Part shown: positions 40,433 to 50,011 of the stretch, in pieces
Numbering within the stretch: the first letter of the stretch is position 1
Layout of the letters: each line of letters opens with the position of its first letter
DNA from: Sandaracinaceae bacterium
GTDB lineage: Bacteria > Myxococcota_A > Polyangia > Polyangiales > Sandaracinaceae
Assembly (NCBI GenBank): GCA_019637095.1
Contig: JAHBWG010000006.1
Span: 1 to 64,000, forward strand
Direction: 5' to 3'
Length of the DNA: 64,000 nt
Notes under the pieces: generated by a model
What the model saw: only the letters and a program-made list of their open reading frames with translations
Told to the model about the DNA's origin: nothing
The model's database searches: none
Position numbers and translations under genes: made by a program

Positions 40433-40448
40433 TATGCTTGGCAGCATA
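40433..40448. promoter_or_regulatory. Inverted repeat at the start of the divergent kinase gene
   Basis: TATGCT (40433-40438) and AGCATA (40443-40448) flank TGGC and end one base before the kinase ATG. In the 58-base divergent spacer this could be an operator for one or both genes. TATGCT could also act as a -10 box. No -35 partner is clear. Confidence 0.4.
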
Positions 40449-40449
40449 C

Positions 40450-41947
40450 ATGCCGAAGTTGGAGCCGGGAACCGTCATCGCGGACAGGTACCGCCTCGAG
40501 GCGCCGATCGGGCGCGGCGGGATGGCGAGCGTCTGGCGCGCGACGCACCTGAGCCTCGACGCCGAGGTCGCGGTGAAGCTCCTCGACCTCTCGGAGGGCA
40601 AGGCCGAGCGGCTGCGCGAGCGCTTCGCGCGCGAGGCCAAGCTCGCGGCGAGCATCAAGCACCGCAACGTAGTCGACATCCTCGACTTCGGCCTGCACGG
40701 CGAGCGGCCGTACATGGTGATGGAGCTGCTCGAGGGCGAGAGCCTCGCGGATCGGCTCGAGGGCGAGGAGCCGATCACCGACGCCGAGCTCTTCGACATC
40801 GCGGCGCAGATCCTCGGCGGGCTCGCGGCCGCGCACGACGCGGGGATCGTCCACCGCGACGTGAAGCCCGACAACGTCTTCCTCGTCCGGGACGCCGACG
40901 GCGTCTACCCCAAGGTGCTCGACTTCGGCATCAGCCGCGACGTGTCGGGCAACAAGGACGACACGCGCGTGACGAGCACGGGCGTGCTCGTCGGCACGCC
41001 GCTCTACATGTCGCCGGAGCAGGCCCGCGGGCTCAAGGACGTCGACGCGCGCACGGACGTGTGGAGCGTCGGCGCGCTGCTCTACGAGGCGCTGAGCGGG
41101 AGCCTGCCGTTCGACTCGGAGAACATGGGCGACATCCTCATCCGCATCGCGATGGAGGACATGCCGCACCTCTCGACCGTGCGCCCCGACCTGCCGGACG
41201 CGGCCGCCGAGGCGGTGATGCGCGCGCTGGTGCGCGATCGCAAGCGACGTTGGCAGTCGGCGCGAGAGATGCGCGCGGCGCTGCTCGCGGCGCGCGACGC
41301 GCTCGGCGCGCAGTCGGTGCGCCGCCACGATCGCAGCGGAGACGGCATCCGGAAGCCGCGGCACGCGGAGAGCTCGCACGACGACGACACGGGCTCGGGC
41401 CCGCTCGTGCGGGCCGCGGGGGGCGCGCGCCCCGCGCCGCGTTGGCCCCTCGCCGTCGCGGGCGGCGCCGCCCTCGTCGCCGTCGCCGCCGCCGCGATCG
41501 TCGTCGCCGGCGGCGGGCTGGGGGGCGAGGCGACGCCGGAGGTGGCGCCGGCGGCGCACCGCGCGACGGGAGCGGCCGTCGATGCCCCCGCGCCGGTCGA
41601 GCCCGACGAACGCCCCGAGCCCCTCGCGAACGTCGTCGCCGCGCGCGCGGCCGAGGCGGCCGAGGCGGCCGAGGCGGCCGAGGCCGCGGCGACCCCGGAG
41701 GAGCCGGGCGAGCCGGCGCCGGGGGCCGGCGAACCGGAGATCGCGCGCGAGACCAGGCCCGGCGAAGCGCTCGCGCACGCCAGACGCGAGAACCGGTCGG
41801 GCCGAGCTGACCCGCGCGCCGCGGCCGCGCGACAGGGCCGCGCTCAGGCCGGCCGCTCCGCCGCCCGCCGCGGCCGCCGGCGCCGCGCCGCCGCCGCGCC
41901 CCGAGGCGCCCGCGCGCGAGGGCTTCCTGCGGGACCTCGACTATTGA
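40450..41947 (+). CDS. Membrane-anchored Ser/Thr protein kinase with probable +1 frameshift in its tail
   Basis: The kinase domain (about 14-280) is complete: GRGGMASVW, Lys43, HRD Asp137, DFG Asp158, GTPLYMSPEQ. A membrane helix follows at 332-354. After this the frame is open through a low-complexity acidic linker (EAAEAAEAAEAA), turns Arg-rich near 41785 and runs on into the next lipoprotein gene. In the +1 frame, from about 41790, the codons look normal again and end in REGFLRDLDY with a stop at 41947. I therefore take 41947 as the true end and place a one-base frame problem at about 41780-41830. If the sequence is correct, the protein would be an unlikely fusion with the lipoprotein. Confidence 0.75.
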
Positions 41948-42042
41948 GCGCGCGCAGGGGCGCTTCGCACCGGCGGCAGTCCGAACGCGGCAGGAGCCGC
42001 GCGGGCTGGCGAGCGAGCGTACGCGGACGCATAGTCCTGCGC

Positions 42043-42708
42043 ATGCGCTGGGCCCTCCTCGGCGCGCTCGGGGCGAGCGCGCTCCTCCTCGCGTGCTCGA
42101 GCGGGGAGCCGCGCGTGCCCGATGAGGGGGAGACCGTCGTGCCCCCCTTCGAGGTGCGCGGCGAGGCCGAGGGCCTGTTGCTCGTGTGGTTCGACGAGGA
42201 GGGCACGCACGTCGCCGCGCGCCGCTCGGACATCCCCGAGGCGCACCGCGCCGCGGTCCGCGTCGACGACCTGCGGGCGAGCGCGAGCGCGGACCCGGCG
42301 CTCGTCTACGTCGCCGACCTACGCGAGCCCGTCGAGGGTGGCGGCTACGCGGTGCGCCGGATGCCGCGCGAGGCCTTCGACGCGCTCGCCGACGGCGCCG
42401 CGGAGCCCGCAGCCGCGCCGGTGGCCGCGGCGCCCGCGGCGACGGCCGGGGACGTGACGGTGTACGGCGCCTCCTGGTGCGGCGCGTGCCGCTCGACCGC
42501 GGCGTTCCTGCGCCAGCGCAACGTCCCGTTCGTCGAGCGCGACATCGAGCGCGAGCCCGGCGCGCGCGAGGCGATGCAGCGCGCGGCGGCCGCGGCCGGC
42601 GTACGCCCCACCGGCATCCCCGTGATCGACTTCCGCGGAGAGATCATCACCGGGTTCGACCGGGGCGCGCTCGAGCGCGCGATCGGGCGCGCGCGCGCGC
42701 CGATATGA
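42043..42708 (+). CDS. Lipoprotein with C-terminal glutaredoxin-like domain
   Basis: 221 residues. Lipobox LLLACSSGE places it on a membrane. Residues about 25-110 form a small beta-type domain of unknown family. Residues about 140-220 are glutaredoxin/NrdH-like: VTVYGASWCGAC with the CxxC pair, the RNVPFVERDIE strand, and the cis-proline motif TGIPVIDF. Glutaredoxins are usually cytosolic, so a lipid-anchored form outside the inner membrane is unusual. The ATG at 42043 begins a clean signal peptide even though the frame is open upstream into the kinase gene. It ends 32 bases before the HSP90-like gene. Confidence 0.8.
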   Translation: MRWALLGALGASALLLACSSGEPRVPDEGETVVPPFEVRGEAEGLLLVWFDEEGTHVAARRSDIPEAHRAAVRVDDLRASASADPALVYVADLREPVEGGGYAVRRMPREAFDALADGAAEPAAAPVAAAPAATAGDVTVYGASWCGACRSTAAFLRQRNVPFVERDIEREPGAREAMQRAAAAAGVRPTGIPVIDFRGEIITGFDRGALERAIGRARAPI

Positions 42709-42740: not shown

Positions 42741-44399
42741 ATGAGCGCCTACCGCGCGGGACACGGCAACGCGCCCACCGAGGAGGGGCGCGAAGACGGC
42801 CTCGTCGACGAGCTCATCCAGCAGTTCGCCGACCCGCTCGCGTTCTACCGCGAGCTCGTCCAGAACAGCATCGACGCGGGCGCGCGCTCGATCGCGGTGA
42901 GCCTCTCGTTCACGCCCGATCCCGGCGCCGACGGACCGGACGCGCTCGGCACGATCGACGTCGCGGTGCGTGACGACGGCTGCGGCATGGGCCGTGAGGT
43001 GCTCGAGGACCAGCTCACCGTGCTCTTCCGATCGGGCAAGGAGGGCCAGCAAGGCAAGATCGGCAAGTTCGGCGTCGGCTTCGTGTCCGTCCTCGCGATC
43101 CGGCCCGAGGTCGTGATGGTGCGCACGAGCGAGGGCCGCGGCGAGCAGTGGACCCTCGCGCTCTCGGCGGATCAGTCCTACGACCTCTTCCGCGCGGAGG
43201 GCGGCGGCGGCGCGGGCACGACGGTGACGCTGCGCTTGCGACGCCCCGCGCGTGAGCTCGACGCGCTCGTCGAGGGGTCCGTCGCGGCGCTCGTGCGGTG
43301 GTGCCGGCACGCGGAGATCCCGATCCGCTTCGCCGCGAGCGCGGCGGGCGGGCAGGTGCTGCGCGAGGCGCGGATCGATCGGCCGCTCGGGCTCGACGCG
43401 CTCGTCACGGTGCGCGTCGACGACGGCTCGACCTCCGTCGTCGCGGGGCTGCCCCTCGACGGGCGCCCTTACCTCGCCTTCTTCAACCGCGGCCTGCTCC
43501 TCTACGAGACACGCAAGGACGTGCTCGGCCAGGTGGTGGTCTCGATCCAGGATCCGAACCTCGAGCACACGCTGAGCCGCGACAACGTCCGTCGCGATCG
43601 ACACTACGAGCGCGCGATGCGGCTCGCGAACCGCGTCGTCGACCGGCACCTCACGCAGCACGTCGAGATCGTCGCGGCCGCGCTCGCGCGCCGGCAGCGC
43701 GAGGAGCCCGCGCTCGAGGTGCTCCTCGACGCGGCCGTGGCCGCCGGGCTCGACCTCGACTACGGCGCGATCGCGCTCCCGCTCTGCGAGCCGGTGGGCG
43801 GCGAGGCGACGATCCCGCTCTCGAAGATCGGCGCGCGCGGCGTGTACGTCGCGACGACGAGGAGCCCGCTGACCGCCGCGGTCGCCCGGCGCGGCGGGCG
43901 CGTGATCGACGCGACGGTCGGCCGGCGGCCCGCCGCCCTCGCGCAGGTGCTGTCGGGCCTGGCCGGTCGCCGGCTCCACGACGCGCACGCGGACTTCACG
44001 CTCGCGAGCCCGGTCGAGCCGCGCCCGCTCGACGGACCGCTCCTCGGGCGCGTGCGCGGGCTCCTCGGCGCGCTGGCGCGCACGCCCGAGGGGCCTCGGC
44101 TCGCGCGCTTCACGGGCGCACGCGCCGGGGCGCTGAGCGTCGCGGGGGGGGACGGCGAGCTCCCGCTCGCCATCGACGCGGCCGGCGGCGCGCTCGACCC
44201 GTTCCGGCTGCTCGCGCGCCCGACGCTGTTGCTCGACGCCGAGCACGAGGTCCTGCGCGAGGCGCGCGAGCTCGCGGAGCACGACGCGGCGAGCGCGGCC
44301 GCGCTCTTGGCGCGCGCCGTCCTGCTCGAGCGCGGGCGGCTCGACGAGGAAGCCGCAGACGAGGCGTGGCTCGAGGCCGCGGCGCGGGAGGTGCCGTGA
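42741..44399 (+). CDS. HSP90-like (GHKL) ATPase
   Basis: 552 residues. The N-terminal GHKL fold is intact: Glu38 and Asn42 in YRELVQNSIDAGA, Asp79 in RDDGCGMG, and the lid/G2 block GKIGKFGVGFVSV. The middle domain resembles HSP90 (LLLYETRKDVLG, DPNLEHTLSRDNVRRD). The C-terminal 200 residues do not look like the HSP90 dimerisation domain and are repeat-poor. Shorter than HtpG (about 620) and without the MEEVD-type end. It is coupled by GTGA to a giant partner that has a degenerate copy of the same N-terminus. A chaperone or conflict-type regulator role is inference. Confidence 0.85.
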   Translation: MSAYRAGHGNAPTEEGREDGLVDELIQQFADPLAFYRELVQNSIDAGARSIAVSLSFTPDPGADGPDALGTIDVAVRDDGCGMGREVLEDQLTVLFRSGKEGQQGKIGKFGVGFVSVLAIRPEVVMVRTSEGRGEQWTLALSADQSYDLFRAEGGGGAGTTVTLRLRRPARELDALVEGSVAALVRWCRHAEIPIRFAASAAGGQVLREARIDRPLGLDALVTVRVDDGSTSVVAGLPLDGRPYLAFFNRGLLLYETRKDVLGQVVVSIQDPNLEHTLSRDNVRRDRHYERAMRLANRVVDRHLTQHVEIVAAALARRQREEPALEVLLDAAVAAGLDLDYGAIALPLCEPVGGEATIPLSKIGARGVYVATTRSPLTAAVARRGGRVIDATVGRRPAALAQVLSGLAGRRLHDAHADFTLASPVEPRPLDGPLLGRVRGLLGALARTPEGPRLARFTGARAGALSVAGGDGELPLAIDAAGGALDPFRLLARPTLLLDAEHEVLREARELAEHDAASAAALLARAVLLERGRLDEEAADEAWLEAAAREVP

Positions 44400-47300
44400 G
44401 CGAGGGCCGCCGCGTCGCGAGCGGGCGCCTGCGGGTCGACGCGGCGCGCGCCGTCGGCAAGCTCCGCGACTACCAGCTCCCCGACCCGACCGCGTGGGTG
44501 CTCGAGGTGATCCGCGCCGCCGTCGCGTTCGGCGCGAGCGCCATCCGCGTGAGCGGCGACGCCGACGACGTTCGCGTCGCGTGGGACGGGCCGGCGCCGG
44601 ATCCGGAGGCGCTCGCGCAGCTCTTCGACGAGCTCGTCGACCCCGCGCCGCGGCGCGAGCGCAGGCCCCTGCGCTTGCTCGCGACGGGCGTCAACACGGC
44701 GCTCGGCCTCGAGCCGCGCTGGGTCGACGTGCTGGTGACCGACGGCGAGGGCGGGGCGATGGCGGCGCGCTACTCGCCGCGCTTGCTCGAGATCGCGGGC
44801 GGCGCGGCCTCGCGCCTGCGCGAGCTGCGGGCCGAGCCGCGGCGGCCCCCGCCCGAGGCGCCGGCGCGCGGCGGGCTCGTGCACCTGCGGCGCCTGCCCC
44901 TGCTCGACGCCGTGCCGCTCATGCTCGGCTACGGCGAGCCACGCGAGCTCTCGATCGTGCGCGGTTCGTGCGACGACGCGACGGTGCCGATCCTCGTCGG
45001 ACGCACCGAGCTCGGGCACGCGCGCTCGCACGTGGACCTGCTCCGCGTCGCGCTCGGCGAGGGGATCGGCGGGTGGCTCGCGCTCGTCGACCCCACGTTC
45101 GCAGGGCCCGGAGCGCGCCTCGAGGCGGCGGAGCTCGGCGTGGTGCTCGCGCGCTACGAGCTCCCCCACGAGCTCTTCCCCTCGCCGCGTGCGCAAGTCC
45201 CGTTGCGATTGTACGTCGACGCGCCGCGCATGCCGACGAACGCCTCGCGCTCGGCGGTCCGGCTCGACGAGTCGCCGGTGCGGGAGGCGCTCGCGCTCGC
45301 GGGCCCGCGCGCGGCGACCCTGATCGAGCGGCTCGCGGCCGAGCTCGGCGACGCGCCGAGCCACGCGTGGACGCCGACGCAGCGCGAGCGGCTGCGCGCG
45401 GGGGCGATCCAGATCCTCGCGGCGCACGCGGCGGGCGAGGACTGGCGCGAGCGCCTCGTGCTCCACGCGCCGCCCGCGCTCGCGCCGCTGCTCGCGCTGC
45501 CGCTCCTCTTCGACGCCCTCGGGCGGCCGCGCGCGGCGTCGAGCTTCTCGCCGCGCGCGCGCGGCGTGGAGCGCGTCCACCGCGGGCGCGAGCCGCTCCC
45601 GCACGAGCTCGAGCGGTGGCTCGGCGACGCGCTCTGGATCCCGCCGGGCGATCCGTCGGCCGCGCTCCTGGGCGCGTGGACACCCGAGCCCGCCGAGCCG
45701 CTCGCCGCGCTCGCGCTCGACAGCCGGTCCGAGCGGCGGCGCTTCGAGGCGCAGAAGAGGCGCGAGCCCCGCCTCGCGGGCGAGGACCCGCGGCACCTGC
45801 TCATCGTGCCGATCTGCGCGCCGGGGCGCTCGCTGAAGACCTGCGTGCCCGAGCGCGCGTTCGCGGTCGAGGGGCTCGCGGGCGAGCTCGCGCTGCTCGG
45901 CTCGCGCGCGGGCACCGGCGCCATCAGCCTGCTCGTCGAGGGGCGCCCGATCGCGACGTGGGCGCCCGAGCACCTCGCGATCGAGGGCGTCGTGAGCGCG
46001 GCGGAGCTCATGCCGTCGGTCGACTTCCGCGGGATCGTCGAGGACGAGGCCTTCGAGCGCGTGCGGGGCGCCGTCCTCGCAGGAGCGGTCGTCGCCTGCG
46101 AGGCGCTCGCGATGCGGTCCCAGGGTCGGGCGGCGCGCGGCGACCGCGCCCGGGCGGTCGCGCCCTGGCTCGCGGCGCCCAGCCCCGAGGCGACCCTCGT
46201 CGTGCAAAAGAAGTTGCGGGAGGGGACGCTGCTCGCCCTCGCCGTGCTCGCGAACGCGGAGCCGGCAGAGGCGCGCCCGAGCGACCACGACGGCGCCGCG
46301 AGCGCGGTCGCGGCGTTCCTCGAGAGCAAGAGCCCGCTCGCGGACGTCCCGGTCTGGCCGACGCTCGGCGGCGGCCTCGCGAGCGCCCGCGAGCTGCTCG
46401 GCGCGGGCGCGCGCGAGCCCTGCGCGATCGGCTTCGTGGTCGGCTCCGTCGACGCGTCGCCGATCCTCGGGGGGCGTGACGTCTTCCTCCTGCGCCCGCG
46501 CGAGCACGCCGCCCTTCACGAGTGGCTCCCGAGCGCGCGCTGGATCGACTACGGCTCCGCGCTGCGCGCCTCACGCGGCGGCGAGTCCCCGCTCACGCGC
46601 GGGCTGCTGCCCGCGCGGGGCGCGCTGCTCGAGATCGTCCTGGACGGCGCGCGCGCCGCGATCGCCTGGGGCGCGGCCGAGCGCTCGCGGCTCGAGGTGC
46701 TCCACTTCGGAGCCCCCGTCGCGGAGGTCGCCCTCGACGTCGAGCCGCCCGTGCTCGTCCGCGTCGACGACGCGCGCCTGCTCCCCACCGAGGCGTTCAC
46801 CCTCGAGGCGGTGCCCGAGTACCCGATCGCGAGCTGGGTCGACGCGCTCGCGCGCGCGTACCACGCGGCGCTCGATGGACGGTCCATCGTCGCGGCGGTC
46901 CGCCTGGGTGCGCCGTCCGCGCTCGAAGCGACGGCGGCGCTCGAGGCCTACTTCGGCTGGCTCGAGAAGGGGCGCATCACCAAGCGCCAGCTCGCGCGGC
47001 TCGCGCGGGTCCCGTTCGTACGGCGCCTCGGCCTCGAGCAGCCGAGCACGCTCGCCGCCGTGGCAGCCGAGACCGAGGGCGGCGCGCCGATCGAGCACGT
47101 CGGGCCGCACGAGTCGGCCGCGATCGACCTCGGCGGTTGGCACCCGGTGCTCGCCACGCCGACGGAGCGCCGCGCGTTCGAGCGCATCCTCGATCGCGCG
47201 TTCGTCGACGCGACCGAGCGGCTCGAGGCGCTCCGGCGCGCGGCCGCCCGCGCGCAGAAGCTCGAGCGGCACCGCGCGCGTCCCCGCGTCGATCCGACGC

Positions 47301-50011
47301 GCGGGTGGCGCGGCCCGTCGGTCGAGGTCGACGGGCACGGCATCGAGCGCGCGGTCGTGACGACCGCAACCGGCGAGAGGCCGCGAGTGGAGGTCGCGAT
47401 CGAGGGCCGCGCGTTCGTCGACGACGAGCGCCCGGACGCGCTGCCCCTCGACGCGTGGATCGATCTGCCGGCCACCGCGGCCGACGAGGCGTTCGAACAG
47501 CTCTCGCCGGAGGGTCGCCGGCGCGTGGCCTACGTGCTCGGCGCGGGTGCGCGCGCGCTGCTGCTCGACGTCGCGCAGCGCGACCCGACCTCCCTCACGG
47601 CCGCGCCGGCGATGCGACGGCTCCTCGAGGCGTGGTGTGGGCGGTTCGCCACGCACCACGCGAAGGGGGCCGATCACAAGGCCGCCACCGCGCTCGCCGC
47701 GCTGCCCGCGTTCCCGACGGTCCAGGGCGGACACGCCCCCCTCGCCGCCGCCGTCGCGCACGACGGCGAGGCGCTCCGCGTCGCGCGCTGGAGCGAGCCG
47801 TGGCTCGAGCCCGCGCCGGGCGAGCGCGCGAGCAGCCTCGATCGGCCCGTCCTGGGGCTCGTCGAGCCCGACCCCGATCGCTACCAGAGGATGCTCGGCG
47901 CGCTGTGGCAGGGCCCGGTCCGCGACGTCGGCGCGAAGGTCGCGCGGCTGCAGGCCACGCGGCGCGTGGCGCGCGGGCTCTCGAACGCGCCTCGCCTCGA
48001 GGGATCCTACGACGCGCGCTTCCGCTTCGACCTCGCCGAGATCCTCGACGAGGCGCAGCACGCGGAGGCGCTCGAGACGCTCGGGATCGGCGAGGTCGCG
48101 CTCGCGGACGCGCCGCGCTCGGAGGTCGTGTTCGTGCGAGGCGCGAACCGCGTGGCGATCGCGAGCCCGCTCGTGCCGAGCGTGCACGTCGCGGCGCACC
48201 GCTCCGACCTCGACGCGCGCGCGCTGGCCTCGCCCGAGCTCCGCTCGAAGGTGGAAGCCGCCTTGTCGTCGCTGATCGGGCTCGTCGTGCGGCGCGCGGT
48301 GGACTCGACGCCGGGCGAACAGCTCCCCGAGTGGCTGCGCCGGGCGCTCCTGACCGCGAGCCTCGCCGGCGGCGCGCTCCACTTCGAGCGCCTCGACACC
48401 GTCCCGATCCTCCCCACCGCCGCGGGCGGCTGGATCACCCCGCGCGAGGTCCGCGCGCAGGCGGCCCGCTTCGGCATGGTCTGGACGACGACGCTCTCCG
48501 GCGAGCCGAACCCGCTCGATCCGGAGCGGGTGGTGCTGCGGCTCGACACGGGCGCGACGCGCCAGCTCGGTGTCTACGCGCCGGCGATGGTCGCCGACGA
48601 GGAGCTCGCGCTCGACCGCCTCGCGCGCGCGAACCTCGCGCGACCCGCGGTCGACTCGCTCGATCCCACGCCCGAGGAGGAGCAGGGCGCGCTCGCGGTG
48701 ATCCCGCTCACCGCGTCCGACGGATCGAGCGCGCACGGGACGATCACGCTCCTGTCGCCGCGGTACGCCATGCGGCGAGGCTTCTACCCGAGCCGCTCCT
48801 ACCACCCGCTCGGGCGCCACGACGATCTCTCGCGCTGGCCGAGCGTCGTGCGCGTCGACGACCCGGCGTTCGCGCCGGACCGGACGTGGTCGGCGCCGGT
48901 CGAGGACGAGGTGATGCGCCGGCTGCGCTCGCGCGTGCGCGGCCTCGTGAGCCTGCGGCTCTCCGAGCTCGTCCCGTTCCGACACGGCCAGCTCACCGCG
49001 CTGCGCGTGAGCTCGGCGCTCGCCAGCGAGCTCCCGCTGCCGAAGGGCACCGAGCTCGAGGGGGTGACGTGGCTCGAGCCCGAGCCGCTGCCGGGCACGC
49101 TGATCGTGCGCGACGCGGGCGGCGATCGCACGCTCGCGAGCGTCGGGATCTCGGGCGCGCCGCTGCCCGTCCACGCGGAGCTGTTGGTGGCCGCGACGCT
49201 CTCGCCGCAGGCGCTCCGCCCGCTGGCCGAGGCCCTCTACACGAGGCTGGTCGCGCGCGTCGCCGACGCGCTCTCGCGCGCGCCCGGCCCCGACTACCCG
49301 GCGCTCCTCGCGCACCTCTTCGAGGCGGTGCGGCTCGGCGCGCGGTTCCCCGACGGGGCGCTCGGTCGCATCCCGGTGCCCGGCTGGGTCCCCGAGGGCG
49401 CGTTCCACGCCCTGCTCGCCCAGCTCGGTCGCGGCGTGCTGGTGCCGGTGTGCGCGCCCGCGGAGGTCGCGATGGCCCAGGCCGCGCTCGAGAGCCCGGT
49501 CCTGTGCGACGACGGCTCGGCCGCGGTGCGCGCGCTGCTCGGCTTCCTCGGCCCACGCGCCATCGGCTGGCGCGAGCGCATGCGCGCGCACGTGCTCGGA
49601 GGGGTCGACGCCGAGGCCGAGCGCGAGCTGGCGCGGGAAGCGCCGCGTTTCGAGCCGCCGCCCGAGGAGCGCGCGGCGCCGGCCGACTCGCCGCGCGGCG
49701 CGCTCGAGCAAGCGGTCTTGTCGCGCTGGAACGCGCTCGCGGTCGGGCGCGCGGAGGGCGCGCACGTCGACGGCCGCCGCAAGAGCCCGGCCGTCGCCTT
49801 CGCCGGCGCGCACCTGCGCCTCGCGGGGCGCCACCCGGTCGTACGCCGCGCGCTCGAGGCGTTCGAGACGGGCGCCACGGAGCGCGCGGACGCGCTCGTC
49901 ACCCTGCTGCTCGCCGCCGCCACGGGCGCGCGCCGCCGCGCCGGCCAGAGCGTGGGCCTCGCCGGCGAGCACGCGCTGCTCGCCGAGCTGATGCGCCAGC
50001 GCGCCCGCTGA
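44396..50011 (+). CDS. 1871-residue giant protein with degenerate GHKL N-terminus, partner of the HSP90-like ATPase
   Basis: The GTG overlaps the ATPase stop (GTGA). Residues about 30-120 align with the partner: DPTAWVLEVIRAAVAFGASAI against DPLAFYRELVQNSIDAGA. The ATP-site glutamate is kept (Glu37), but the Mg-binding Asn is Ala41 and the DDGCGMG loop is reduced to WDG, so ATP hydrolysis is unlikely. The remaining 1700 residues have no transmembrane segments or recognised enzyme motifs. They contain three related 'P..PT..GG' units near 650, 1102 and 1336. It is rich in Ala, Arg and Leu, with no signal peptide, so cytoplasmic. Sacsin-like HSP90-repeat proteins are the nearest thing I know in style. 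Function unknown. Confidence 0.8.
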   Translation: MSEGRRVASGRLRVDAARAVGKLRDYQLPDPTAWVLEVIRAAVAFGASAIRVSGDADDVRVAWDGPAPDPEALAQLFDELVDPAPRRERRPLRLLATGVNTALGLEPRWVDVLVTDGEGGAMAARYSPRLLEIAGGAASRLRELRAEPRRPPPEAPARGGLVHLRRLPLLDAVPLMLGYGEPRELSIVRGSCDDATVPILVGRTELGHARSHVDLLRVALGEGIGGWLALVDPTFAGPGARLEAAELGVVLARYELPHELFPSPRAQVPLRLYVDAPRMPTNASRSAVRLDESPVREALALAGPRAATLIERLAAELGDAPSHAWTPTQRERLRAGAIQILAAHAAGEDWRERLVLHAPPALAPLLALPLLFDALGRPRAASSFSPRARGVERVHRGREPLPHELERWLGDALWIPPGDPSAALLGAWTPEPAEPLAALALDSRSERRRFEAQKRREPRLAGEDPRHLLIVPICAPGRSLKTCVPERAFAVEGLAGELALLGSRAGTGAISLLVEGRPIATWAPEHLAIEGVVSAAELMPSVDFRGIVEDEAFERVRGAVLAGAVVACEALAMRSQGRAARGDRARAVAPWLAAPSPEATLVVQKKLREGTLLALAVLANAEPAEARPSDHDGAASAVAAFLESKSPLADVPVWPTLGGGLASARELLGAGAREPCAIGFVVGSVDASPILGGRDVFLLRPREHAALHEWLPSARWIDYGSALRASRGGESPLTRGLLPARGALLEIVLDGARAAIAWGAAERSRLEVLHFGAPVAEVALDVEPPVLVRVDDARLLPTEAFTLEAVPEYPIASWVDALARAYHAALDGRSIVAAVRLGAPSALEATAALEAYFGWLEKGRITKRQLARLARVPFVRRLGLEQPSTLAAVAAETEGGAPIEHVGPHESAAIDLGGWHPVLATPTERRAFERILDRAFVDATERLEALRRAAARAQKLERHRARPRVDPTRGWRGPSVEVDGHGIERAVVTTATGERPRVEVAIEGRAFVDDERPDALPLDAWIDLPATAADEAFEQLSPEGRRRVAYVLGAGARALLLDVAQRDPTSLTAAPAMRRLLEAWCGRFATHHAKGADHKAATALAALPAFPTVQGGHAPLAAAVAHDGEALRVARWSEPWLEPAPGERASSLDRPVLGLVEPDPDRYQRMLGALWQGPVRDVGAKVARLQATRRVARGLSNAPRLEGSYDARFRFDLAEILDEAQHAEALETLGIGEVALADAPRSEVVFVRGANRVAIASPLVPSVHVAAHRSDLDARALASPELRSKVEAALSSLIGLVVRRAVDSTPGEQLPEWLRRALLTASLAGGALHFERLDTVPILPTAAGGWITPREVRAQAARFGMVWTTTLSGEPNPLDPERVVLRLDTGATRQLGVYAPAMVADEELALDRLARANLARPAVDSLDPTPEEEQGALAVIPLTASDGSSAHGTITLLSPRYAMRRGFYPSRSYHPLGRHDDLSRWPSVVRVDDPAFAPDRTWSAPVEDEVMRRLRSRVRGLVSLRLSELVPFRHGQLTALRVSSALASELPLPKGTELEGVTWLEPEPLPGTLIVRDAGGDRTLASVGISGAPLPVHAELLVAATLSPQALRPLAEALYTRLVARVADALSRAPGPDYPALLAHLFEAVRLGARFPDGALGRIPVPGWVPEGAFHALLAQLGRGVLVPVCAPAEVAMAQAALESPVLCDDGSAAVRALLGFLGPRAIGWRERMRAHVLGGVDAEAERELAREAPRFEPPPEERAAPADSPRGALEQAVLSRWNALAVGRAEGAHVDGRRKSPAVAFAGAHLRLAGRHPVVRRALEAFETGATERADALVTLLLAAATGARRRAGQSVGLAGEHALLAELMRQRAR

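What the first reader, a model, noticed from the sequence alone, without database searches (positions are those of the whole stretch)
42741..50011. HSP90-like ATPase coupled to a giant protein carrying a degenerate copy of its ATP-binding fold
Seen: the genes overlap by GTGA. The first has intact GHKL motifs (Glu38, Asn42, Asp79, lid glycines). The giant's N-terminus aligns with it over the DP-x-A-aromatic-x-x-E stretch but has Ala41 for Asn and lacks the DDGCGMG loop. Known: GHKL/HSP90-like ATPases with large helical partners occur in sacsin-type proteins and in several bacterial conflict systems. Inference: a catalytic/regulatory dimer in which the giant is a platform or effector. I know of no named two-gene system of this form.
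Basis: partly seen in the sequence, partly recalled or inferred. Interest (0 to 1): 0.8.

Follow-up and report, generated by a model that had tools for sequence, protein, structure and literature searches.

The report
Active–dead HSP90 pair with multi-middle-domain giant
Two overlapping genes encode a short HSP90-type chaperone with an intact ATP-binding site and a giant partner that is itself an HSP90, with a dead ATP site, a chain of six to seven HSP90 middle domains and an HSP90-like tail; the pair has stayed together across several bacterial phyla, which points to an undescribed lopsided form of the HSP90 machine.

Summary
Gene 1 (42741-44399, 552 aa) is a compact full-length HSP90 relative (N, middle and C-terminal domains) with intact GHKL motifs. 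Gene 2 (44396-50011, 1871 aa) overlaps it by GTGA. Its first ~435 residues are an HSP90 N+M module with a dead ATP site: Ala replaces the Mg/ATP Asn, there is no DxGxG, and the lid is altered. The rest is not a helical platform. It is a row of HSP90 middle domains (five full, one half, one more by fold only), ending in an HSP90-type C-terminal dimerisation domain. Of 73 non-redundant loci with sequence downstream of gene 1, 70 carry the giant next, 50 with the same 4-bp overlap, in Myxococcota and in loci labelled Elusimicrobia, Eremiobacterota and Armatimonadetes. The ATP site is dead in all 67 giants aligned. The two proteins' trees mirror each other (r=0.84), both genes are under purifying selection, and the genome has a separate true HtpG. 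Most likely this is an obligate asymmetric HSP90 heterodimer: one ATPase arm, and one dead, very long arm carrying client-binding modules. Complex formation and function are inferred, not shown. I found no evidence for phage defence. Best filed as a new variant of HSP90.

The parts
42741..44399 (+). Gene 1: compact HSP90-family ATPase, 552 aa (N, middle and C-terminal domains)
   Evidence: HATPase_c_3 E 8.7e-10; its family profile aligns to HtpG residues 28-609 over query 32-534, E 1.8e-14; catalytic residues invariant in 31 homologues
42798..43310 (+). Gene 1 N-terminal GHKL domain (about residues 20-190): E38, N42, D78-x-G80-x-G82, lid G108/G111/G113
   Evidence: invariant columns of alignment A1
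43311..44060 (+). Gene 1 middle domain (about residues 191-440) with HTLSRDNVRRD, R280 in the place of the HSP90 catalytic Arg
   Evidence: aligned to HtpG middle-domain SRE motif; H276, T277, S279, R280 invariant
44061..44396 (+). Gene 1 C-terminal domain (about residues 441-552), LxLN..HPxV motif
   Evidence: aligned to HtpG residues 512-609; shared motif with the giant's C-terminus, hhalign E 1.2e-5
44396..44399 (+). 4-bp overlap GTGA of the two genes
   Evidence: sequence; 4-bp overlap in 50 of the 67 loci where the gap could be read
44396..50011 (+). Gene 2: giant catalytically dead HSP90 relative, 1871 aa
44396..44935 (+). Giant pseudo-N-terminal domain (residues 1-180): A41 for Asn, no DxGxG, lid replaced by LLAxGVNTALG; most conserved part of the giant
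   Evidence: fold match to HSP90 N+M, Z 15.6; 17% of columns at least 80% conserved versus 1-7% elsewhere
44936..45760 (+). Giant middle domain 1 (residues 181-455), TNASRSAVR motif
   Evidence: hhalign to gene 1 middle domain E 2.1e-8; fold
45761..46600 (+). Giant middle-domain repeat 2 (residues 456-735)
   Evidence: hhalign to MD1 E 1.6e-7 and to MD5 E 2.1e-16
46601..47281 (+). Giant middle-domain repeat 3 (residues 736-962)
   Evidence: hhalign to MD2 E 2.1e-10
47282..47995 (+). Giant middle-domain repeat 4 (residues 963-1200)
   Evidence: hhalign to MD5 E 7.4e-12; fold match to isolated HSP90 middle domains Z 8.5-8.7, rmsd 3.8-4.0
47996..48649 (+). Giant middle-domain repeat 5 (residues 1201-1418)
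   Evidence: hhalign to MD2 E 2.1e-16
48650..49000 (+). Giant middle-domain half repeat 6 (residues 1419-1535)
   Evidence: hhalign to MD2 E 3.9e-13; fold match to first middle-domain part of TRAP1/MORC, Z about 9
49001..49630 (+). Giant putative middle-domain repeat 7 (residues 1536-1745), by model only
   Evidence: aligned with the middle domain of HSP90 M+C structures at large overall rmsd; no sequence signal
49631..50008 (+). Giant C-terminal HSP90-type dimerisation domain (residues 1746-1871)
   Evidence: giant 1754-1871 to HSP90 CTD 8oxu Z 10.4, rmsd 3.9; HtpG CTD 1sf8 Z 8.5; LxLxxxHPxV motif shared with gene 1
41980..42708 (+). Upstream gene with a lipoprotein-like start and glutaredoxin domain, 32 bp before gene 1; possible co-transcribed neighbour in Sandaracinaceae only
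   Evidence: PF00462 E 4.4e-10; conserved at the same place in L032 and L067

Best explanation
The locus encodes an obligate, asymmetric HSP90-type machine. Gene 1 is the ATPase protomer: N, middle and C domains, all catalytic residues kept. The giant is the second protomer: an HSP90 whose ATP site died anciently and whose middle region was multiplied into six to seven domains, keeping the HSP90 C-terminal domain. Proposed working (inferred): the two chains dimerise through their C-terminal domains. ATP binding by gene 1 closes its lid and docks its N-domain on the conserved pseudo-N-domain of the giant, closing the clamp. Hydrolysis by gene 1 alone, with R280 of its own middle domain, reopens it. 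The giant's row of middle domains is an enlarged, faster-evolving surface that holds large or extended clients or assemblies during the cycle. Shown here: the domain architectures, catalytic-residue status, gene coupling, mirrored trees and purifying selection. Inferred: the physical heterodimer, the clamp cycle, and client binding by the repeats. The clients are unknown.
For: Gene 1 profile aligns over HtpG from N to C domain. Giant N-terminus matches gene 1, hhalign E 9.7e-14, and short partners E 3.4e-18. Giant models have pLDDT 82.5 and 87.5; residues 7-434 match HSP90 N+M at Z 15.6, 964-1180 an HSP90 middle domain, and 1754-1871 an HSP90 C-terminal domain at Z 10.4. MD1-MD6 are mutually homologous while unrelated profiles score 0.0-0.2%. 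The Asn is lost in all 67 giants, while gene 1 keeps every catalytic residue. Adjacency in 70/73 loci, 4-bp overlap in 50. Mirror tree r 0.84, permutation maximum 0.22. dN/dS below 1 in both genes, lowest or near-lowest in the pseudo-N-domain in most pairs. The parts that dimerise in HSP90 (N and C ends) and MD1 are the most conserved parts of the giant, and the repeats the least. A true HtpG exists elsewhere in the genome, so this is not the housekeeping copy.
Against: No complex was predicted or tested; only single chains could be modelled. Sequence similarity between the two C-terminal domains is short (38-56 columns). Arms of very different length cannot close like a normal HSP90 clamp unless the row of middle domains bends back, and the models' pTM (0.52-0.60) does not fix the overall shape. 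The pseudo-N-domain keeps the catalytic Glu in 54 of 67 giants although the ATP site is gone, which the model does not explain. One genome has the two genes unlinked (L115/L176), and gene 1 paralogues without an adjacent giant occur in L125 and L132.
Confidence: 0.6

Rival explanations
1. Gene 1 works as an ordinary HSP90 homodimer, and the giant is its dedicated adaptor or privileged client: the pseudo-N-domain docks the homodimer, and the repeats form a scaffold for other proteins.
For: Gene 1 has its own C-terminal dimerisation domain. In some genomes gene 1 paralogues occur without an adjacent giant, and one genome has the two genes unlinked.
Against: Near-strict co-linkage with translational overlap suggests stoichiometric assembly, and the giant keeps both HSP90 dimerisation modules.
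Confidence: 0.25
2. It is an anti-phage or conflict system of the GHKL kind, with gene 1 as sensor/switch and the giant as effector platform.
For: Weak PADLOC TmtA hits to the GHKL domain (E 2.7e-4). GHKL ATPases do occur in defence, e.g. the Shedu variant VcSduA (PMC12137116). In Sorangium pairs MD4 and MD5 evolve at dN/dS about 0.9-1.4.
Against: No effector domain in the giant, only HSP90 domains. No phage hit; plasmid hits partial and HtpG where annotated. Trees of the pair mirror each other and group by bacterial lineage. Neighbours here are a kinase, a glutaredoxin gene, DUF1361 and a universal stress protein, not a defence island.
Confidence: 0.1
3. It is a sacsin-type giant chaperone split over two genes.
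For: The gene 1 GHKL domain resembles NCBIfam P_loop_sacsin (40.4 bits) and Pfam SACS (26.4 bits), both below cut-off. Sacsin also repeats HSP90 N+M-like units (PMC9880540).
Against: Sacsin has three ATP-site domains in one chain and no HSP90-like C-terminal domain (PMC9880540). Here there is one live and one dead ATP site, many middle domains and an HSP90-like C-terminal domain.
Confidence: 0.05

Closest known systems
HtpG / HSP90 / TRAP1 (molecular chaperone HSP90 family)
   Same: Gene 1 shares the N-M-C domain order, GHKL motifs, middle-domain Arg and C-terminal LN..HPxV motif; the giant shares the three folds.
   Different: Classical HSP90s are homodimers of two active chains with one middle domain each. 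Here one chain is dead and has six to seven middle domains. Gene 1 scores far below the HtpG model cut-off (38.5 vs 371 bits), and a true HtpG exists separately.
Sacsin (SACS) and bacterial sacsin-N-terminal-like proteins
   Same: Giant proteins with repeated HSP90-derived units; the gene 1 ATP domain is about as close to sacsin models as to HtpG.
   Different: Sacsin repeats the whole N+M unit with intact ATP sites and lacks an HSP90-like C-terminal domain (PMC9880540); no bacterial two-gene form was found in the papers searched.
Single-chain bacterial GHKL defence proteins (Tiamat/TmtA; Shedu-type VcSduA, paraMORC3)
   Same: GHKL ATPase domain.
   Different: Only the ATPase domain is similar and weakly so (E 2.7e-4 to TmtA). 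No nuclease or other effector was found; it is a two-gene pair with middle-domain repeats.

Membership tests
HSP90 family (gene 1) | Bergerat/GHKL site: Glu, Asn, DxGxG, lid glycines | tested here: met
   E38, N42, D78, G80, G82, M83, G108, G111, G113 invariant in 31 homologues
HSP90 family (gene 1) | Middle domain with catalytic Arg loop | tested here: met
   HTLSRDNVRRD aligned to the HtpG SRE motif; S279 and R280 invariant
HSP90 family (gene 1) | C-terminal dimerisation domain | tested here: met
   profile aligned to HtpG 512-609; moderate alignment confidence and no model made of gene 1
HtpG as curated (NF003555 / Pfam PF00183) | score above the curated cut-off | tested here: not met
   38.5 bits against 371; no PF00183 hit
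HSP90 family (giant) | HSP90 N+M folds | tested here: met
   Z 15.6 over residues 7-434 to Hsc82; Foldseek E 1.1e-10 to TRAP1
HSP90 family (giant) | functional ATP site | tested here: not met
   Asn replaced in 67 of 67; no DxGxG
HSP90 family (giant) | C-terminal domain fold | tested here: met
   Z 10.4 to 8oxu, Z 8.5 to HtpG CTD 1sf8
HSP90 family (pair) | dimerisation through C-terminal domains; ATP-driven clamp closing | not testable with these tools
Sacsin | several ATP-site repeats in one chain, no HSP90-like C-terminal domain; SACS model score | tested here: not met
   one live and one dead site in two chains, CTD present; SACS 26.4 bits against 32.8
Tiamat (TmtA) defence | single GHKL giant matching the TmtA profile over its length | tested here: not met
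   about 95 residues of gene 1, E 2.7e-4; the giant has no hit

The most novel reading that the evidence does not exclude
A widespread, undescribed branch of HSP90 machines built as obligate heterodimers of one live protomer and one dead, multi-middle-domain protomer, in some phyla run together with a dedicated AAA+ ATPase and two unnamed proteins in one operon, and in an Eremiobacterota-type lineage radiated into about fifty dead-HSP90 paralogues with different tails.
Probability: 0.5. Interest if true: 0.88.

Novelty: new variant of a known kind. Interest (0 to 1): 0.78.

Why it matters
HSP90 is thought of as a symmetric homodimer with one middle domain per arm. A natural pair with one ATPase arm and one dead, greatly lengthened arm would test directly whether two ATP sites are needed, what the middle domain contributes to client grip, and how pseudo-enzymes steer a chaperone. 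It also gives function leads for a gene pair, unnamed in the libraries searched, that is kept in many large myxobacterial genomes and found in other phyla.

Tried and rejected
Direct profile search of the giant against Pfam, NCBIfam, PADLOC and PDB sequences found nothing; only profile-profile and fold comparison revealed its nature. Decaying gene: rejected, giant dN/dS 0.08-0.8 for most domains in close pairs. Large helical partner: rejected by the models. Mobile defence cargo: no phage hit, plasmid hits partial and HtpG where annotated. c0 and AAA+ profiles did not ring in 12 Polyangiales-side genomes; the coiled-coil profile rings in control genomes but not in G000 or Sorangium. Absence of c0 and AAA+ therefore lacks a direct positive control. 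Sequence comparison of middle-domain repeat 7 with the other repeats gave no signal. A short match of the giant's N-terminus to phosphoserine aminotransferase (E 1.2) is chance. Papers: no description of such a pair in open full texts; most subscription journals are not held.

Full report
What is in the window. Gene 1 (42741-44399) is a 552-aa protein and gene 2 (44396-50011) an 1871-aa protein; the GTG start of gene 2 lies inside the stop of gene 1 (GTGA). The genome (9.25 Mb) belongs by kinship of its hits with Sandaracinaceae/Polyangiales, Myxococcota. It has a separate true HtpG (626 aa, NF003555 E 3.7e-209), so the pair is not the housekeeping HSP90.

Gene 1. Library searches give GHKL/HSP90-like ATPase (HATPase_c_3 E 8.7e-10) and sub-threshold HtpG and sacsin matches. 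A profile of 31 homologues aligns with E. coli HtpG from residue 28 to 609, covering N, middle and C-terminal domains (E 1.8e-14). All catalytic positions are invariant: E38, N42, D78-x-G80-x-G82, lid glycines, and S279-R280 in the middle-domain loop.

Gene 2, N-terminal part. Profile-profile comparison with gene 1 gives 98.1%, E 9.7e-14 over 353 columns; an alignment of short homologues (under about 1330 aa) gives E 3.4e-18. An AlphaFold model of residues 1-980 (pLDDT 82.5) matches HSP90s best in Foldseek (E 1.1e-10), and residues 7-434 align with Hsc82 residues 3-521 at Z 15.6, rmsd 7.1 over 369 residues. The ATP site is dead: the Asn is Ala here and never Asn in 67 giants, and DxGxG is gone, while the Glu persists in 54 of 67.

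Gene 2, the rest. A model of residues 880-1871 (pLDDT 87.5) again finds HSP90s. Giant residues 964-1180 match isolated HSP90 middle domains (Z 8.5-8.7, rmsd 3.8-4.0), 1419-1525 match the first half of a middle domain (Z about 9), and 1754-1871 match HSP90 C-terminal domains (8oxu Z 10.4, rmsd 3.9; HtpG 1sf8 Z 8.5). Independently, all-against-all profile comparison shows that segments MD1 to MD6 are homologous to each other (for example MD2-MD5 98.7%, E 2.1e-16; MD1-MD5 E 7e-9), and MD1 to the gene 1 middle domain (E 2.1e-8). Unrelated profiles give 0.0-0.2%. Middle domain 7 rests on the model only. The two C-terminal domains share the LxLN..HPxV motif (E 1.2e-5). So the giant reads: dead N domain, five full and one half middle domains, one more by fold, and a C-terminal domain.

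Conservation as a unit. Gene 1 homologues (search over whole genomes, then a scan of 84,980 species genomes) were followed by the giant in 70 of 73 non-redundant loci with sequence downstream, 50 with the exact 4-bp overlap; complete partners run from 722 to 2030 aa. They occur in Sandaracinaceae, Polyangiaceae, Sorangium, Kofleriaceae, Nannocystaceae, Archangium, Elusimicrobia, Eremiobacterota and Armatimonadetes, as the record titles name them. Distances of the two proteins correlate at r 0.84 (permutations at most 0.22), and the tree groups by lineage. Both genes are under purifying selection; in most pairs the pseudo-N-domain has among the lowest dN/dS. Share of well-conserved columns is 17% in the pseudo-N-domain, 7% in MD1, 6% in the C-terminal domain and 1-3.5% in the other repeats. 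In three Sorangium-clade strains MD4 and MD5 approach or exceed dN/dS 1.

Surroundings. Near the pair lie a Ser/Thr kinase, a gene with a glutaredoxin domain and lipoprotein-like start (32 bp upstream, conserved at that place in two other Sandaracinaceae), a DUF1361 protein and a universal stress protein: no defence island. Phage records give no hit and plasmids only partial hits, annotated as HtpG where annotated. In deeper branches gene 1 sits in an operon c2 (coiled coil) - c0 (unnamed) - c3 (AAA+ ATPase) - gene 1 - giant; Myxococcaceae-type loci keep c0 next to the pair; in 12 Polyangiales-side genomes c0 and c3 were not found.

The three exceptions. L125 and L132 carry a second gene 1 copy in the c2-c0-c3 operon, and their genomes hold linked gene 1-giant pairs elsewhere (L170, L167); L115's genome has the giant unlinked. 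The genomes of L125 and L132 also hold over fifty matches each to the dead N-domain profile, many of them short proteins (roughly 350-665 aa), some with TPR or zinc-ribbon tails.

Mechanism. The giant keeps both modules by which HSP90 protomers pair (N-terminal and C-terminal domains) and these, with MD1, are its most conserved parts, while the middle repeats drift. With translational coupling and mirrored trees, the simplest reading is an obligate heterodimer with one hydrolysing arm and one dead, elongated, client-holding arm. Steps shown: architecture, residue status, coupling, selection. Steps inferred: the complex, the clamp cycle, client binding. The chief rival is a gene 1 homodimer served by the giant as an adaptor. 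A defence role has no positive support beyond weak GHKL similarity.

Novelty. No library names the giant, and no open paper found describes the pair. It is HSP90 by descent, so I rate it a new variant of a known kind, an unusual one.

Noticed in passing
L132:4107-7954 (same order in L117, L125, L128, L131, L142, L150): Conserved operon upstream of gene 1 in deeper branches: c2 coiled-coil (~365 aa), c0 unnamed (~340 aa), c3 AAA+ ATPase (~590 aa, abutting or overlapping gene 1); c0 also lies next to the pair in L092, L109, L120.
   Followed up: partly
genomes of L132 (G452) and L125 (G453); L157-L173: Over fifty matches per genome to the dead HSP90 N-domain profile, many short proteins, some with TPR or TFIIB-like zinc-ribbon tails; a striking expansion of dead HSP90s in an Eremiobacterota-type lineage.
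   Followed up: partly
L107 (also L149): Two gene 1-giant pairs in tandem in one locus (L107); in L149 a second HSP90-like giant follows the pair.
   Followed up: no
L064, L065, L066: Another family of two adjacent HSP90-like GHKL genes in Polyangia genomes, only distantly related to gene 1.
   Followed up: no
L096, L104, L049 (Sorangium clade giants, MD4-MD5): dN/dS about 0.9-1.4 in middle domains 4 and 5 while the N-domain stays at 0.24-0.31; diversifying or relaxed selection.
   Followed up: partly
window 40438-42708: One open frame runs through a Ser/Thr kinase and then a lipoprotein-like glutaredoxin gene; probably two genes, with the kinase end shifted to another frame or a sequencing frameshift.
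   Followed up: no
L176:3237-8177 (G454) and L115: A genome where the giant and gene 1 lie unlinked.
   Followed up: partly
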